Position numbers and translations under genes: made by a program. Below, in pieces: positions 22,574 to 44,478 of a stretch of DNA of 44,501 nucleotides (position 1 is its first letter; each line of letters opens with the position of its first letter). Source of the DNA: Luteitalea sp. (GTDB lineage: Bacteria; Acidobacteriota; Vicinamibacteria; Vicinamibacterales; Vicinamibacteraceae). The DNA lies in contig WHTT01000054.1 in assembly GCA_009377605.1 (NCBI GenBank), positions 1 to 44,501 of the forward strand. Direction: 5' to 3'. The notes beneath the pieces are model-generated. The model was given only the letters and a program-made list of their open reading frames with translations. It did no database searches and had not been told where the DNA came from.

Positions 22574-22676
22574 CGGACTCACACACTTCCGGCTCACTGC
22601 CACCACGCGCGTGCGCCACGTCGAGTCTACGCGAATACGGCCTAGCGAGACCAACGGCGCCCTGCCAGAGGAGGAA

Positions 22677-22704
22677 GGTAGGGACGCCTCGCCGAGGCGT
22701 CCGT
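22677..22704. repeat. REP-like hairpin repeat, copy R1
   Basis: GGTAGGGACGCCTCGCCGAG and the following GCGTCCGTT form a 9-bp stem (ACGCCTCGC/GAGGCGTCC region). It is the same unit as at 43488-43586 and 44450-44478: a GGTAGGG lead, then a GC stem around CGCCGAGG. It lies in the gap between the YagU-like gene and PadR. Confidence 0.75.
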
Positions 22705-22777
22705 TCCCCCTCCATCGGCACCGAGCGTGCGACCGCTCGAGCCGGGCAGGCGTCTTGGATAGAGCCTGCGGCAGGAT

Positions 22778-24405: not shown

Positions 24406-24442
24406 GCTTCTAGTCTAAGCGGATCCCTGATGGCCACAGTAC

Positions 24443-24474
24443 GTAGCGAGGGGTCTTTAGACCCCCCGCCCTAC
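24443..24474. repeat. REP-like hairpin, variant R6
   Basis: GTAGCGAGGGGTCT, TT, AGACCCCCCGCCCTAC form a stem with GTAG/CTAC ends, the same layout as the GGTAGGG repeats but with a GGGGTCT stem. The last bases include the stop codon of the VOC gene, so it may also act as its terminator. Confidence 0.55.
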
Positions 24475-24884
24475 TGGACCGCTTTCGGATCCATCCAGAA
24501 GACTTCCCAATGATGTCCATCGAGGTCGTAGAAGCTCCAGCCGTACATGAAGCCGTGGTCCTGCGGATCCATCGCGTGCGTGCCACCCGCAGCGATGGCC
24601 TTCTTCACCACCTCATCCACTTCCGTCTTGTCGTCGCACGAAAACCCGAAGAGCCCTTCGACCTGCTTGGCCGTGTCCAACGGCTCACGCTTGGTAAACG
24701 TCTTGAAGTAGGGCTCGGCGAGAAGCATCACGAATGCCTCGTCGCTGACGATCATGCACGCCGCGTTCTCGTCCGTGAACTTCGGGTTGAACGCGAAGCC
24801 GAGGCTCGAGAAGAATTCCATCGACTTCTTCAGATCGCGGACGGGCAGGTTGACGAAGAGCTTTCTGGAACGTTGTTCTGCCAT
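24471..24884 (-). CDS. VOC (glyoxalase/bleomycin-resistance-like) family protein
   Basis: A 137-residue protein with two betaalphabetabetabeta halves: [36 protein letters not shown] at the front and [48 protein letters not shown] at the back. It resembles the YdfO/YaeR-like 'extradiol-dioxygenase-like' group, whose members often sit next to ECF sigma factors. An ECF sigma remnant lies just upstream on the same strand, consistent with that former arrangement. The enzymatic role is unknown. Confidence 0.85.
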
Positions 24885-24935
24885 GAGTCTCTCGATGAGT
24901 GAGTTGGGCTCGCTCTATTGATCCGTCCAAGCATC

Positions 24936-25034
24936 TTATCTTCCCGCACGCGTCGGTAGCAGCGCGCGCAGGCGATGGTCGCGCAGCCAGAGCCCTGCCC
25001 AGAGCAGCGCAGCCAGGTACGTCGGGAACAGCGT
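24936..25034 (-). pseudogene. C-terminal fragment of a small membrane protein (DoxX-like)
   Basis: The minus strand reads [20 protein letters not shown], then [13 protein letters not shown] and a stop at 24936. One hydrophobic helix followed by RDxRLRALxP resembles the end of DoxX-like membrane proteins. It is joined out of frame to the start of an ECF sigma factor, so neither gene is whole. The family call is tentative. Confidence 0.35.
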
Positions 25035-25036
25035 GT

Positions 25037-25138
25037 GGGGACGGCGTCCTCGGCGTCGACGGCCGAGCCCAACATCCGGTAGCAGTGCCCGAGCAGCCCA
25101 GAGCGGTGGCCCTCGAGCTGTGCGACATCGGTTAGCAT
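25037..25138 (-). pseudogene. N-terminal fragment of an ECF sigma factor
   Basis: [20 protein letters not shown], then [13 protein letters not shown], covers the first helix of sigma region 2 (pattern HR..[19 protein letters not shown] of SigG/RpoE-type ECF factors). It breaks off before the QExxLRAW segment. What follows is the DoxX-like tail in another frame. The 214 bases between here and the ATPase contain no gene that I can recognise. Confidence 0.65.
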
Positions 25139-25319
25139 CCTGGTTGTGATAGCACCACGCCGCGAAATTCGTCAACAGCCTTACGGAGGGCGGCGATGAC
25201 GACAGTGCCCCTCATGGGGCCTTCTGGATCGTGGCAGGTTAGTGACGCTGAGTGCTTGCCGTGCGGGCAGCGCGAGCCCCCAGACTGGTGCTTCGCGTTG
25301 GCCCAACGAAGAGTAACAT

Positions 25320-25351
25320 CTATGATACTAACATTGATGTTAGTATCATAG
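25320..25351. promoter_or_regulatory. Perfect 32-bp palindrome directly upstream of the ATPase start
   Basis: CTATGATACTAACAT, TG, then its exact reverse complement ATGTTAGTATCATAG. It ends one base before the GTG start at 25353. It is AT-rich in a GC-rich neighbourhood. It could be an operator for a dimeric regulator or, in RNA, a hairpin of 15 pairs that hides the start codon. It leaves no room for an ordinary ribosome site. Confidence 0.9.
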
Positions 25352-25352
25352 A

Positions 25353-26774
25353 GTGATTAAGCGTCGGTTTGTCGGGCGGAAAGCGGATCTCGAGCGGCTG
25401 GAGCGGCATCTTCGTATCGTTATCAGGGAGGGTAACGGCCGGCTGATCAGCGTTCGCGGGCGGCGCCAGGCGGGCAAATCCCGTCTGGTGACCGAGTTCA
25501 CAGAGAAGAGCGGCCTGCCGCAGCTCTTTTTCACTGGCTCTCGCCTTGCCTCACCGGGTGAGGAACTGGCCCGTTTCGCCGCGGAGGCAACTCGATCCTC
25601 CACGCTGCCTGCAGCCCACCTGTTCAACGGCGTCCGACTGGAGAGTTGGGACGCGGCACTGCGTCTGGTGAACGCCGCGTTGCCCGACGCCCCAGCCATC
25701 GTCGTGCTCGACGAGTTCCCGTGGCTGGCGCAGTCGGACCCGGCGCTCGAGGGGGTGCTCCAGACACTCTGGGATCGGGTGTTCGAGGCAAAGCCCGTAC
25801 TCTTCATCCTCATCGGATCCGATCTGGCGATGATGGAGGCTCTGACAGCTCACGACAGGCCGCTGTTCGGGCGTGCCAAAGAGATCGTCGTCAACCCCTT
25901 GACCCTCGCCGACACGGCGGCCATGACTGGCATCGAACGCGCCGCCACGGCGGTGGATGCCCAACTCGTCACGGGCGGCTACCCGCGCCTCTGCCTGGAG
26001 TGGCACGGCGTGGGCGACGTGATGACGTTTCTGCGGGACCAACTGACCGACGAGAATTCCGACCTCGTGGTCGTCGGTCGTAACGTGATGGCCGCCGAGT
26101 TTCGGTCGGAGCTCCAGGCCCGCCATGTGCTTGCTGCCATTGGTGCGGGGGACCGAACGAACAAGACGATCGCAAACCGTTCCGGCCTCCAAGCGGCATC
26201 CTTGGCTCGCTCGCTCCACACGCTGCGTGACGATAAGAGGATCATTGCCTCCGACCTGCCAGTTTCAACCCGACCGGCGAAGGAGCCGCGGTATCGAGTG
26301 GCTGATTCCTACCTCCGGTTCTGGCTGCGGTTCATCGAGCCGGCGCAGGCAGACATTGCTCGCGGCCGTCCCGATCTGGCGCTGGCCCGAGTGCAAGAGT
26401 CGTGGGTCGAGTATCGGGGCAAGGCGGTCGAACCGCTGGTACGAGAATCCCTCGAGCGCATTGCCGCCGATGATCCACGCCTGGCGGGCACTGGCGTCGT
26501 GGGGAGCTATTGGACGCGCACCGGGAATGAGGAAGTGGATCTTGTAGGCGTGGACCGCTGGCCTGGAGCGCGTTCTGTCGTCTTCGTCGGTTCCATCAAG
26601 TGGCGAGACCAGAAGCCGTTCAATCGCTACGATCTGGCGGCGCTCGCCGGGCAGCGATCGCGGGTGCCCGGCGCGAGCGAGACGGCACTCGTGGTGGTCA
26701 GCCGTTCGGGATTCACCGTGCAGGACGTTGCAGCAGCCTTCGGTCCAGCGGACCTGGTCGCGGCGTGGCGATGA
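25353..26774 (+). CDS. AAA ATPase with C-terminal DUF234-type nuclease-like domain
   Basis: A 473-residue protein from the GTG at 25353. The N-terminal ATPase is of the archaeal-ATPase/AAA_14-like group: FVGRKADLERLERHL, Walker A GRRQAGKSRL (about residue 36), Walker B AIVVLDEFPWL (about 116), and LIGSDLAMMEAL (sensor-1-like). A winged-helix middle part follows (NRSGLQAASLARSLHTL), then YRVADSYLRFWLRFI. The C-terminal DUF234 region has WTRTGNEEVDLVGVD and VFVGSIKWRDQKPF. Relatives of the PD-(D/E)xK fold usually have ExK at the last site; here it is SIK, so nuclease activity is doubtful. The role of the family is unclear. The palindromic leader suggests tight control. Confidence 0.85.
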   Translation: MIKRRFVGRKADLERLERHLRIVIREGNGRLISVRGRRQAGKSRLVTEFTEKSGLPQLFFTGSRLASPGEELARFAAEATRSSTLPAAHLFNGVRLESWDAALRLVNAALPDAPAIVVLDEFPWLAQSDPALEGVLQTLWDRVFEAKPVLFILIGSDLAMMEALTAHDRPLFGRAKEIVVNPLTLADTAAMTGIERAATAVDAQLVTGGYPRLCLEWHGVGDVMTFLRDQLTDENSDLVVVGRNVMAAEFRSELQARHVLAAIGAGDRTNKTIANRSGLQAASLARSLHTLRDDKRIIASDLPVSTRPAKEPRYRVADSYLRFWLRFIEPAQADIARGRPDLALARVQESWVEYRGKAVEPLVRESLERIAADDPRLAGTGVVGSYWTRTGNEEVDLVGVDRWPGARSVVFVGSIKWRDQKPFNRYDLAALAGQRSRVPGASETALVVVSRSGFTVQDVAAAFGPADLVAAWR

Positions 26775-26843
26775 AGTCTCACTGGCCACCTCTGTCAAAC
26801 AGGTGGACGATAGCCAGGAGACGACAGAGAAAATGCTCTAGGA

Positions 26844-30684: not shown

Positions 30685-30921
30685 ATGAGTGCACGCTCCA
30701 TCGAGTCGATCACACGCGCTGCACTTCAGCTGCAGCCTGATGCACGAGTGCAACTTGCACGCTCTCTCGTCCAGAGTTTGGCCGACTTGCCCGAGACCGA
30801 GTTGGCAGAGCTTTGGCTGGCCGAAGCCGAGCGCCGGGATGCCGACATGGAGTCAGGTAAAGTAGAGGGCATCCGCGGTGAGGAGGTCTTTGATCGCATC
30901 CAAGCGCGTCACGGCAGGTGA
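30685..30921 (+). CDS. Addiction-module antitoxin (Unstab_antitox family)
   Basis: A 78-residue protein, MSARSIESITRAALQLQPDA, RVQLARSLVQSLADLPETEL, AELWLAEAERRDADMESGKV, ending with GIRGEEVFDRIQARHG. This is the usual layout of small antitoxins that pair with ParE/RelE toxins: helical N-terminus, then AExxRRxxxxxxGxxxxxxxEEVF. Its stop overlaps the toxin ATG (TGATG). Because the toxin next door is damaged, it may be a solitary antitoxin now. Confidence 0.82.
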   Translation: MSARSIESITRAALQLQPDARVQLARSLVQSLADLPETELAELWLAEAERRDADMESGKVEGIRGEEVFDRIQARHGR

Positions 30922-31185
30922 TGCTGCCCTATGTGTTTCACCCTCTCGCGGCGAAAGAGCTTGAGGCTGCCGCAGCCTACTACGAGAGCCGCGCCCCCGG
31001 TAAGGGTTTGGAGTTTGCACAACAGATCAAAGCGGCCGTTGAACAGATTCGCGCATTCCCGGAATCGGCGCCTGTCACACGCGGGTCTGTTCGTTCCGTT
31101 GTGATTCAGCCCTCATCTCGCTGGCGTTTACCCTGTACTACCGCGCCAAACCCAATCGCATTCGTATTCTTGCAACCGTCCGCAC
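30921..31185 (+). pseudogene. ParE/RelE-type toxin, frameshifted and 3'-truncated
   Basis: From the ATG at 30921: MLPYVFHPLAAKELEAAAAY, YESRAPGKGLEFAQQIKAAV, RAFPESAPVTRGSVRSVVIQ, PSSRW. Near 31123 one base is missing. In the next frame it continues FTLYYRAKPNRIRILATV, the normal C-terminal strand of ParE. After that the match stops, because sequence of the convergent DUF1772 gene begins. Both defects would remove the toxin's last residues. The larger open frame to 31289 is out of frame and meaningless after residue 70. Confidence 0.8.
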
Positions 31186-31608
31186 GTGGTTCCAGGCGGT
31201 CCAGCTCGTCACGTAGCTGGCCCACACCTTGGCGCCCTCGGTGCTCGTCGCATCGACAGCGGCGAGCGCGTCGTTCCGCGGCACGTTGAACACTCGCGTC
31301 ACGAGCACGGTCCCGACGACATAGAGCAAGCCGCCGGTGAGCAGATAGCCTGCACCGGACGTGTGCCACCTCGTGAGCGAGAGGAACGCCGTCACGAGGC
31401 ATGTTGCTGCCGTTCCCAAGAGCACACTCAGGAACAATGGATTGAGCACCACGATGTTGATCGATTGCATCGCGGCGATGCCTTGCGCCGGTGGAAGACG
31501 TGCAAGGGCCCGCATGACGAAGGTCGAAAAGGCAAAGAAGACCCCGGCGATGAGACCGCAGCCGAGTGCTGACACGAGAGTCAGCACGAAGAGCCAGTCG
31601 TCGATCAC
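31138..31608 (-). CDS. DUF1772 membrane protein with replaced C-terminus
   Basis: A 156-residue protein from the GTG at 31608, chosen because AAGGAG lies eight bases upstream. A much longer open frame from 31851 is antisense to the polymerase gene. Four helices are visible: LFVLTLVSALGCGLIAGVFF, SINIVVLNPLFLSVLLGTAA, GYLLTGGLLYVVGTVLVTRVF, and the conserved SWTAWNHVRTV. Family members continue after NHVRTV with another hydrophobic helix. Here the tail is ARIRMRLGLAR, read from the opposite strand of the ParE gene. The protein has lost its final helix. Function of DUF1772 (anthrone-oxygenase-like) is unknown. Confidence 0.75.
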   Translation of the reverse strand: MIDDWLFVLTLVSALGCGLIAGVFFAFSTFVMRALARLPPAQGIAAMQSINIVVLNPLFLSVLLGTAATCLVTAFLSLTRWHTSGAGYLLTGGLLYVVGTVLVTRVFNVPRNDALAAVDATSTEGAKVWASYVTSWTAWNHVRTVARIRMRLGLAR

Positions 31609-42303: not shown

Positions 42304-43629
42304 ATGCTCACCCGCGTTGCAACACCTGTCCTTGCCGTGGCCGTCATGGCGAGCGCTCCCGTGGTTGGTCACTGGCAGCAGCCGCGCTTCTCGTCTGCGG
42401 ACACCGCGCTGCGCGTGAGACGATGGCTGGATCCAGCATCCGGCCAATTCCACGGACCGTCGGCGATTGTGGTGTCTGGCACTCGGATCAAGCACATCGT
42501 GCCGTTAGCCGACTTCGATCAGCGGTCCACCAAGGCACTGATTGATCTTGGAGCCGCGACGGTGCTGCCAGGCCTCATCGACGCCCATGTGCACCTGACA
42601 ATCGGTGGCACATCCCGCGCGAACGCCGCTGCGATCCTTCGGGCCGGCTTCACCACCGTCGCCGATCTCGGCGCCACGTCCGATGCCGTGATCCGGCTGC
42701 GCGACGCCATTGCTTCCGGAGATGCCGAGGGCCCTCGCATCTTGGCAGCCGGCCTTTGGGTGGGCACGAAGAACGGCATCTGCGAGTTTGGTGGGATCGG
42801 TGTCGATGGCGGCCCGAAGCAATTCCGCGCGCGCGTGCGCGAGAACGTGGCTTCGGGGGCCGACCTGACGAAAGTTTGCGTGTCTGGCTGGACGAGGGAC
42901 GCCTTCGCCCATCCGGACGCCTACGAGATCTCGGATGCCGCGCTGGCGGCGGTGGTCGACGAGTCTCGGCGACGGGGTCACGTCGTGCTCGCCCACGCGA
43001 TAAGCCTCGGAAGCGTCCAGGCGGCGCTCCGCGCAGGCGTCGATGGATTGGCACACGCGGCATATCTCGACGCGGCCACAGCGACGGTGCTCCGTGACAA
43101 AGGCGTGTTTCTCGTTCCGACGCTTGCCTCCCTGCTGCGCGGGACGCAGGGCAGAGCAGGAGTCGCACTGCAAGAGTCCGTGGCAGAGGCACACCGCGCC
43201 GGTGTGCGGCTCATCTTCGGGACCGATGGCGGCGTGCTTCCACACGGCGAGAACGCCGTGGAGTTCGCCGCCCTGATCGAAGCAGGCGTGCCAGCGATCG
43301 ATGCAATCCGCGCCGCAACGGTCGACGCAGCGGATGCTTTGGGCTTGGCCACCGAGATCGGCACAATCGACATCGGCAAGACGGCTGACCTCATCGCCGT
43401 CGACGGTGATCCGCTACACGATCCGACGGCGCTTTCCCGAGTGACCTTCGTCATGCAGAGCGGCCACGTCGCACGCCATGAGAGATCGGCCGCCTCGGCG
43501 AGGCGGCCTACCATCGTTCGCGGTAGGGCGCGTTCGCCGAACGCGCCGTGGTGCGCGATCCACGGCCTCGCCGAGGCGGCGCTACCGTCTAACAGGGTCC
43601 CACGAACGTTCCCGCGGGCTGTCCGGTGA
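42304..43629 (+). CDS. Imidazolonepropionase-like amidohydrolase, exported, with repeat-encoded C-terminus
   Basis: A 441-residue protein from the ATG at 42304 (leader MLTRVATPVLAVAVMASAPVV). The amidohydrolase-1 motifs are VLPGLIDAHVHLTIGG (HxH), GFTTVADLGA, KVCVSGW (metal Lys position), HVVLAHAISLGSV, DGLAHAAYLD and LIFGTDGGVLPHG (metal Asp). The C-terminal strand ends normally at DLIAVDGDPLHDPTALSRVT, FVMQSGHVARHE. The last about 50 residues (RSAASARRPTIVRGRARSP and onward) are translated from three REP-like hairpins at 43488-43586, so the natural stop codon has been lost. Third gene of the haem dehydrogenase/TIM-barrel operon. Confidence 0.87.
   Translation: MLTRVATPVLAVAVMASAPVVGHWQQPRFSSADTALRVRRWLDPASGQFHGPSAIVVSGTRIKHIVPLADFDQRSTKALIDLGAATVLPGLIDAHVHLTIGGTSRANAAAILRAGFTTVADLGATSDAVIRLRDAIASGDAEGPRILAAGLWVGTKNGICEFGGIGVDGGPKQFRARVRENVASGADLTKVCVSGWTRDAFAHPDAYEISDAALAAVVDESRRRGHVVLAHAISLGSVQAALRAGVDGLAHAAYLDAATATVLRDKGVFLVPTLASLLRGTQGRAGVALQESVAEAHRAGVRLIFGTDGGVLPHGENAVEFAALIEAGVPAIDAIRAATVDAADALGLATEIGTIDIGKTADLIAVDGDPLHDPTALSRVTFVMQSGHVARHERSAASARRPTIVRGRARSPNAPWCAIHGLAEAALPSNRVPRTFPRAVR
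43488..43586. repeat. Three consecutive REP-like hairpins (R2-R4)
   Basis: R2 at 43488-43512 (GGCCGCCTCGGCGAGGCGG then CCTACC), R3 at 43520-43551 (GGTAGGGCGCGTTCGCCG then AACGCGCCGTGG) and R4 at 43560-43586 (CCACGGCCTCGCCGAGGCGG then CGCTACC). R2 and R4 are in opposite orientation, so the outer two can also pair with each other. They encode the C-terminal tail of the amidohydrolase. The same unit occurs at 22677 and 44450. Confidence 0.8.
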
Positions 43630-44068: not shown

Positions 44069-44449
44069 GCGTGGACCCCGGGGTTCCTACGCGAAACGCG
44101 CTCTATTTTGATCCCGCCTGCGCGTCGACGCAACTGGTGCCGATCGCGAGCTCATCCGCGGGGAGCGTGTCGAGGGAATATCGGATCGGATCGCGTGTCG
44201 ATCCGTGAGGCCTCGGCCAGTCGTGGAAACGATCGACGGCGTCGTCCGGCGCATCATGCCGTCGGCCGACACGGGTTACCCCGCAGATCGGCAGCTTGCC
44301 CCGGGGCCAGTTCGGCACCAATCTGGCGCGCCTTACAACAATCACCGGCATGGTGACGGTATATTCGTCAGTCCAGAACTGTCACAGCGAGGTTACCGCC
44401 ATTGGCGTAACATGCCGATGTATCGTCCTGAACGCGTATCCTCGTCCAA
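44069..44449. other. No gene recognised
   Basis: Short open stretches exist on both strands (for example a minus-strand frame at 44103-44351 and a plus-strand frame from 44205), but none has a convincing ribosome site, family motif or coding pattern. The stretch may be intergenic or a worn-out gene end. Confidence 0.4.
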
Positions 44450-44478
44450 GGTAGGGCCGCCTCGCCGAGGCGGCCGTG
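44450..44478. repeat. REP-like hairpin repeat, copy R5
   Basis: GGTAGGGCCGCCTCGCCG, then AGGCGGCCGTG: a 9-bp stem GGCCGCCTC/GAGGCGGCC style around CGCCG. Same orientation and lead sequence as R1 and R3. Confidence 0.8.

What the first reader, a model, noticed from the sequence alone, without database searches (positions are those of the whole stretch)
25320..25351. Perfect 32-bp palindrome touching the start codon of an AAA/DUF234-type ATPase
Two 15-base arms match without error around a TG centre and end one base before GTG. A typical Shine-Dalgarno cannot fit. The element may be an operator, a start-hiding RNA hairpin, or the recognition site of the ATPase/nuclease-like protein itself.
Basis: seen in the sequence. 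Interest (0 to 1): 0.6.

Follow-up and report, generated by a model that had tools for sequence, protein, structure and literature searches.

The report
Defence-candidate ATPase with private operator
The perfect palindrome just before this gene looks like the switch by which a suspected anti-virus ATPase turns its own gene off, and many relatives of the gene in bacteria and some archaea carry their own differently spelled palindromes in the same place.

Summary
Confirmed, and slightly longer than reported: a perfect 34-bp palindrome (two 16-nt arms, TG centre, 25319-25352) ends at the GTG of an AAA + winged-helix + DUF234 protein. It is neither chance nor peculiar to this gene. Of 126 distinct family members (query included), 52 have an upstream inverted repeat that beats all 60 of its own shuffles (8 of 175 control ORFs; Fisher 2e-15), spelled differently in each subfamily; 51 of 126 show none at p <= 0.05. 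In 16 of 65 bacterial repeats the predicted -10 hexamer sits on the dyad axis (2.5 expected). Repeat similarity follows the winged-helix sequence beyond the rest of the protein, though it also follows the ATPase part. DUF4143 ATPases show the same (31 of 85). PADLOC lists both families as candidate phage-defence systems (PDC-S27, PDC-S01). Best explanation: a private operator, bound by the protein's own MarR-like winged helix, that blocks its own promoter. An RNA hairpin or transposon end fits worse. Binding and repression are inferred. The mechanism is of a known kind (nearest precedent: CapW); a repressor fused into the candidate effector, in two abundant and mostly untested families, did not turn up in nine literature searches (listings, several capped).

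The parts
25319..25334 (+). left arm of the palindrome (TCTATGATACTAACAT)
   Evidence: 100% complementary to the right arm
25335..25336 (.). dyad centre (TG)
25337..25352 (+). right arm, ending directly before the GTG start
25298..25303 (+). putative -35 hexamer TTGGCC
   Evidence: 4 of 6 matches, 17-nt spacer; consensus match only
25321..25326 (+). putative -10 hexamer TATGAT inside the left arm; expected transcript start near the dyad axis
   Evidence: the pair scores 9 of 12; consensus match only
25353..26774 (+). gene of the AAA + winged-helix + DUF234 protein, 473 aa, GTG start
   Evidence: PADLOC PDC-S27 at 1.7e-24
25458..25481 (+). Walker A region GRRQAGKS (residues 36-43)
   Evidence: G and K invariant in 121 aligned members
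25710..25715 (+). Walker B DE (residues 120-121)
   Evidence: invariant in the 18-row alignment
26094..26312 (+). MarR-like winged helix-turn-helix, about residues 248-320
   Evidence: best-modelled part; ZitR Z 9.8 over 86 residues; family profile matches ZitR, E 0.0045
26322..26609 (+). DUF234, nuclease-like domain; D396 and K416 kept, the usual E is S414

Best explanation
The palindrome is the private operator of the ATPase gene. A dimer (or larger assembly) of the ATPase binds it through the protein's own MarR-like winged helix and covers the -10 region and transcript start, so the protein shuts off its own transcription; an ATP- or ligand-driven change, probably on infection or DNA damage, would release it. 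Shown here: the palindrome; the frequent recurrence of such repeats just before the start of family members, with subfamily-specific spelling; their coincidence with the predicted -10 in part of the members; and, by fold and sequence comparison, a winged helix in the protein. Inferred: direct binding, repression, the releasing signal, and any role in defence.
For: (1) Enrichment: 52 of 126 distinct family upstream windows beat all 60 dinucleotide shuffles and 75 of 126 have p <= 0.05, against 8 and 21 of 175 control ORFs (Fisher 1.6e-15). With the first start codon of each ORF as anchor, as for the controls, it is 48 of 124; further upstream in the same loci 4 of 123, inside the same genes 1 of 125, shuffled windows 4 of 126. 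(2) Place: in 69 non-redundant repeats the end lies a median 19 nt (quartiles 12 and 34) before the start codon. (3) Promoter: in 16 of 65 bacterial repeats the best -10 hexamer is centred on the dyad axis; permuting gives a mean of 2.5 and at most 9 in 5000; a -35 with 5 or 6 of 6 matches lies 16-18 nt from axis-centred hexamers in 19% of 104 positions against 2.8% of 2700 shifted ones. (4) Protein: residues about 248-341 match MarR-type repressors. (5) Co-variation: repeat similarity tracks winged-helix identity given the ATPase and nuclease parts (partial Mantel r 0.14, p 0.001), while the nuclease part given the others gives r 0.04, p 0.087. (6) Within 3 mismatches the site is single in the 162 genomes searched, which fits self-control better than a regulon. 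(7) The closest full-length relative found, in a Streptomyces plasmid (44.9%), has a different perfect palindrome with 20-nt arms. (8) DUF4143 ATPases: 31 of 85 beat all shuffles, with a symmetric consensus and variable inner bases. (9) 7 of 10 members without the catalytic acid keep a repeat that beats all shuffles, so the site seems to serve something other than cleavage.
Against: No binding, transcript or expression data. 51 of 126 members show no repeat at p <= 0.05, among them 4 of 8 archaeal plasmid members. The ATPase part also tracks repeat similarity on its own (r 0.205 given the others, p 0.001), so the co-variation is not specific to the winged helix. In 49 of 65 bacterial repeats the best -10 is not on the axis; in the query it is 12 nt off and the predicted promoter is weak, 9 of 12. 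The structure model is poor overall (mean pLDDT 52.9), and no Pfam helix-turn-helix model matches the query. Symmetric pair changes between relatives are biased because repeats were chosen for symmetry.
Confidence: 0.7

Rival explanations
1. The palindrome is a DNA target of the AAA-nuclease protein itself, for example a cleavage, homing, transposition or origin-like (Orc1/Cdc6-like) site, and any promoter overlap is secondary.
For: The domain plan AAA + winged helix + nuclease-like fold suits a DNA-acting machine; Cdc6/Orc1 initiators rank among the fold matches of the low-confidence model, as does the P. abyssi Walker-type ATPase 2QEN. The gene is sporadic: in the same-genus genome G515 the conserved permease alignment stops at 26842, just past the gene.
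Against: No second copy of the half-site in the window and no other dyad in 162 genomes within 3 mismatches, so no terminal-repeat pair; 7 of 10 members without the catalytic acid keep the repeat; part of the dyad axes coincide with -10 hexamers.
Confidence: 0.12
2. An RNA hairpin in the leader hides the start codon and controls translation.
For: The full 34-mer folds very stably as RNA (82-nt stretch z -3.8); it abuts the GTG; G-T mismatches in family repeats exceed A-C ones, 20 to 10, p 0.10; in a few members the Shine-Dalgarno stretch or start lies in or at the repeat.
Against: From the predicted promoter the transcript starts at the axis and the hairpin is gone (z 0.13 and -0.32). The repeats typically end 12-34 nt before the start codon, and tandem arrays such as that of paralogue L032 do not suit one hairpin.
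Confidence: 0.07
3. The palindrome is an operator for some other, unlinked regulator.
For: Palindromic operators are common. Among the nine neighbouring ORFs scanned with Pfam one is a regulator, a PadR-type gene ending 2.2 kb upstream.
Against: Spelling differs between paralogues of one genome (L001, L030, L032) and follows the ATPase's own sequence across the family; the dyad occurs once in the genome within 3 mismatches.
Confidence: 0.08
4. Chance, or a compositional artefact.
For: The palindrome is an AT-rich island in a GC-rich window.
Against: Dinucleotide shuffles, control ORFs and shifted windows.
Confidence: 0.01

Closest known systems
PDC-S27 (PADLOC candidate phage-defence family; DUF234 ATPase) and PDC-S01 (DUF4143 ATPase)
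   Same: The query matches PDC-S27 at 1.7e-24; the four DUF4143 proteins tested match PDC-S01 at 2e-88 to 4e-121. PMC12988326 (passages) describes both as ATPase domains fused to PD-(D/E)XK members and says validation is pending for most such candidates.
   Different: The query lacks the usual catalytic Glu (Ser in 6 of 121, Glu in 109 of 121). A search of PMC12988326 for 'palindrom' gave 0 occurrences in the main text.
CapW, repressor of CBASS (PMC9122588, passages)
   Same: A winged-helix dimer that binds palindromes overlapping the -10 of a defence promoter and appears to control its own gene as well.
   Different: CapW is a separate WYL-domain protein; here the candidate repressor is one domain of the candidate effector, and the repeats are longer (query 34 bp; median span 39 bp in the 52 strongest; CapW's sites 19-24 bp).
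MarR-family repressors (ZitR, AdcR, MarR, SlyA)
   Same: Best structural match of residues about 248-341.
   Different: Here the domain sits between an AAA ATPase and a nuclease-like domain.
Archaeal Walker-type ATPases PABY2304 (2QEN) and SSO1545 (2FNA)
   Same: Same AAA + winged-helix part.
   Different: The chains (350 and 357 residues) were matched only by the first 327 residues of the model; no DUF234 part was matched.

Membership tests
PDC-S27 / DUF234 ATPase | AAA ATPase core with Walker A and B | tested here: met
   AAA_16 34.1 bits against 32.6; G and K of Walker A in 121 of 121
PDC-S27 / DUF234 ATPase | DUF234 domain above the curated score; PADLOC model match | tested here: met
   44.2 bits against 22.5; PDLC04984 1.7e-24
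PDC-S27 / DUF234 ATPase | intact D...(E)xK nuclease motif (usual in the family, 109 of 121 have the Glu) | tested here: not met
   D396 and K416 present, Glu replaced by Ser414; so member by profile, but probably not an active nuclease
PDC-S27 / DUF234 ATPase | antiviral activity | not testable with these tools
   no experiment; none of nine neighbouring ORFs scanned with Pfam is an evident phage-defence gene
Self-repressing operator of the MarR/CapW type | palindrome overlapping the promoter of the gene | tested here: met
   predicted -10 TATGAT lies inside the left arm; consensus match only
Self-repressing operator of the MarR/CapW type | winged-helix DNA-binding domain in the gene product | tested here: met
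   low overall model confidence
Self-repressing operator of the MarR/CapW type | direct binding and repression | not testable with these tools
   needs binding and reporter assays
RNA start-hiding hairpin | hairpin present in the transcript | tested here: inconclusive
   absent if the predicted promoter is used; transcript start not mapped
Transposon or IS end | matching inverted repeat at the other end of the gene | tested here: not met
   no other half-site in the window at up to 3 mismatches
Orc1/Cdc6-type origin box | several boxes near the initiator gene | tested here: inconclusive
   one dyad only; fold matches to Orc1/Cdc6 come from a low-confidence model

The most novel reading that the evidence does not exclude
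Sensor, effector and repressor are one polypeptide, and each gene carries its own private palindrome as both off-switch and safety latch: the ATPase-nuclease rests on its own operator and is let loose when ATP binding, a phage product or destruction of host DNA frees it, which raises its own synthesis at the same moment. The different spelling of these sites between paralogues would keep several such latches from cross-talking in one cell. This would be a shared design of two of the most abundant, mostly untested defence candidates, PDC-S01 and PDC-S27.
Probability: 0.2. Interest if true: 0.8.

Novelty: new variant of a known kind. Interest (0 to 1): 0.6.

Why it matters
PMC12988326 (passages) reports 29,494 bacterial and 9,986 archaeal PDC-S01 and 4,562 bacterial and 3,503 archaeal PDC-S27 systems, and says validation is pending for most candidates of this kind. 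A private operator shared by much of these families gives a first handle: it suggests that the proteins bind DNA sequence-specifically through the winged helix, where, and that expression is self-limited, so heterologous tests that keep the native promoter may see little protein. It would also supply many protein-site pairs for learning a winged-helix recognition code.

Tried and rejected
Close relatives by back-translated peptides: none in genome contigs or viral contigs. The exact dyad core was not found in genome contigs. Five scans of viral contigs gave 4 loci in all. An empty site in a relative: G515 shares the permease from 26842 on at 89%, but what lies upstream differs entirely, so no clean empty site was seen. 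A leader-peptide reading (9-codon ORF inside the palindrome) was not pursued. RNA G-U bias: 20 against 10, p 0.10, inconclusive. Symmetric co-changes between relatives (178 symmetric, 107 both-changed but unpaired, 298 one-sided, in 71 locus pairs) are not used as proof, because the repeats were selected for symmetry. Control ORFs were not cleared of DUF4143 genes (one search places one in a stretch they came from), and divergent neighbours can share an upstream window; the first at least makes the control conservative. Literature: nine searches listed no paper that I recognised as describing palindromes upstream of DUF234 or DUF4143 genes; these are listings, several capped (25 of 26, 30 of 385, 25 of 600 and 10 of 27 shown), and subscription journals and preprints are mostly absent from the library, including the preprint in which the PDC families are said to be described (reference seen, not read).

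Full report
What is there. The next base begins the GTG of a 473-residue protein (25353-26774). It is the only perfect 16-nt-arm inverted repeat in the window, and ten window shuffles gave none even at 13 nt. The half-site occurs nowhere else in the window within 3 mismatches, and the dyad at one place in 162 genomes of the order.

The protein. Pfam gives AAA_16 and DUF234 above their cut-offs, ATPase_2 and AAA_14 below. PADLOC calls it PDC-S27, a candidate phage-defence protein. An AlphaFold model built from five sequences is poor overall (mean pLDDT 52.9), but its best part, residues about 248-341, matches MarR-type repressors (ZitR Z 9.8, rmsd 3.3 over 86 residues), and a family profile matches ZitR by sequence (E 0.0045). 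The C-terminal domain reads like a PD-(D/E)XK fold (my reading of the predicted elements; the published description of the family says the same); D396 and K416 are kept, but the Glu found in 109 of 121 aligned members is Ser here, as in 6 of 121. The closest full-length relative found is a DUF234 protein of a Streptomyces plasmid (44.9%); inside its own phylum the best is 33% (28 of 396 genomes have a match at 1e-20, the own genome among them).

Is the palindrome a family feature? I collected members from searches of 396 genomes of the phylum, 162 of the order and 142 and 2 genomes of two other classes (these sets overlap), from 21 plasmid or phage records and from 4 viral contigs. A profile search over all loci gave 200 hits; after dropping hits that start late in the profile, those with under 130 nt upstream or with N, and duplicates, 126 distinct upstream windows remained, the query included, 18 of them from the plasmid and phage records and 4 from viral contigs. 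The best inverted repeat was scored against 60 dinucleotide shuffles of the same window: 52 of 126 beat all 60, and 75 of 126 had p <= 0.05. For 175 other ORFs, from 16 of the fetched stretches, it was 8 and 21. Anchoring the family on the first start codon, as for the controls, gives 48 of 124; the same loci 297-430 nt upstream 4 of 123; inside the genes 1 of 125; shuffled windows 4 of 126. Fisher's exact test, 52 of 126 against 8 of 175, gives 1.6e-15. Repeats scoring 12 or more: 32 of 126 against 3 of 175. The 52 strongest span a median of 39 bp. On the other side, 51 of 126 members have no repeat at p <= 0.05, including 4 of 8 archaeal plasmid members; some of these have short repeated half-sites that this score misses (seen by eye), others nothing visible.

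The repeats are spelled differently. One group has TAGTCTACT/AGTAGACTA, another GTATACT/AGTATAC, another GGTTAT/ATAACC, another CATTATG-like half-sites (grouping by eye); the Streptomyces relative has 20-nt arms CATGTTACTTCCATTCATGA; a Mesorhizobium relative has 19-nt arms (two mismatches) that run into its ATG. Within the window's own genome paralogue L030 has TTTAGTAAA...TTTACTAAA, L032 a tandem array of about 16-bp units, and a fourth, L182, nothing significant. Similarity between repeats follows protein similarity: in a partial Mantel test on 69 non-redundant loci (of 73 with a repeat at p <= 0.05 and score 8 or more, and a protein in the alignment) the winged helix adds to the ATPase and nuclease parts (r 0.14, p 0.001), the nuclease part adds nothing clear (r 0.04, p 0.087), but the ATPase part also adds (r 0.205, p 0.001). 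So the site evolves with its own protein, and the winged helix is a plausible but not unique carrier of that signal.

Where on the promoter? In the 65 non-archaeal loci of that set the best sigma-70-like -10 hexamer is centred on the dyad axis in 16; permuting axes among loci gives a mean of 2.5 and never more than 9 in 5000. Good -35 hexamers lie at the right spacing from axis-centred hexamers in 19% of 104 positions against 2.8% of 2700 shifted positions. This is the layout of a promoter-blocking operator. In the other 49 the best hexamer is elsewhere, inside or outside the repeat. In the query the predicted -10 (TATGAT, 25321-25326) lies in the left arm, 12 nt off the axis, with a weak -35, and the start of transcription would fall near the axis.

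RNA or DNA? As RNA the whole element folds strongly (z -3.8), but a transcript starting at the axis does not (z 0.13 and -0.32). 37 of 69 members with a repeat have a Shine-Dalgarno stretch near the start, in some of them inside the repeat. G-T mismatches exceed A-C ones 20 to 10, p 0.10, which leaves a small opening for RNA.

A second family. I ran DUF4143 ATPases, also AAA plus nuclease-like, as a control, and they share the feature: 31 of 85 usable loci (of 90) beat all shuffles and 43 of 85 have p <= 0.05 (Fisher against the 175 controls 8e-11). Of these 43, 21 end within about 5 nt of the next in-frame start codon, as in the query. Centre-aligned, 41 of them show a symmetric consensus near ACCTTGAAAAT...ATTTTCAAGGT with inner bases that differ from gene to gene. 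The four tested proteins are PADLOC PDC-S01. I read a helix-turn-helix-like stretch in one of them, by eye only.

What it most likely does. The simplest reading is self-repression: the protein's winged helix binds the palindrome and blocks RNA polymerase. That members with a broken nuclease motif still keep a repeat that beats all shuffles (7 of 10 without the acid; 44 of 111 with it) argues for regulation over cleavage. The nearest described case is CapW, which binds 19-24-bp palindromes overlapping the -10 of CBASS promoters (PMC9122588, passages). CapW is a separate protein, whereas here repressor and candidate effector would be one chain. [quoted passage not shown] PMC13356809 (passages) counts them in rumen genomes. 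The BrxR papers were seen in a search listing only.

What is not shown. There is no binding, transcript, expression or phage data. Defence is a database label, and none of the nine neighbouring ORFs scanned with Pfam is an evident phage-defence gene. The gene looks like a sporadic acquisition (inference): the same-genus genome G515 keeps the neighbouring permease gene from 26842 on at 89% but has different genes beyond it.

Noticed in passing
L196-L225 and L248-L307, upstream of DUF4143 genes: Many DUF4143 (PDC-S01) ATPase genes carry their own palindromes, near ACCTTGAAAAT...ATTTTCAAGGT with variable inner bases, often abutting the start codon.
   Followed up: partly
window 26842: Alignment to the same-genus genome G515 (contig C73) begins exactly here, at the end of the FtsX/MacB-type permease gene; in the 19 kb fetched no match to the ATPase region was found.
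   Followed up: partly
window 22657-22706, 43484-43550, 44448-44476: Short repeated elements (29-68 nt, 85-94% identical) that recur in the G515 contig; the first overlaps an imperfect palindrome.
   Followed up: no
window 24437-24480: A stretch of about 40 nt that recurs in G515 (95%) and on another contig of the own genome (89%).
   Followed up: no
window 25322-25351: A 9-codon ORF (ATG ATA CTA ACA TTG ATG TTA GTA TCA TAG) lies inside the palindrome and ends one base before the GTG start; may be a by-product of the palindrome.
   Followed up: no
window 26592-26600: The usual catalytic Glu of the nuclease motif is Ser in the query, its Streptomyces relative and paralogue L030, and Ala in paralogue L032.
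   Followed up: partly
window 24830-25138, minus strand: Fragment that reads by eye like the start of an ECF-type sigma factor; no Pfam match.
   Followed up: no
window 30918-31289: ParE-toxin-like ORF, just above the Pfam cut-off.
   Followed up: no
L190, minus strand about 7788: A control ORF with a very long upstream inverted repeat (32-nt arms, 22-nt spacer), the strongest of the 175 controls.
   Followed up: no
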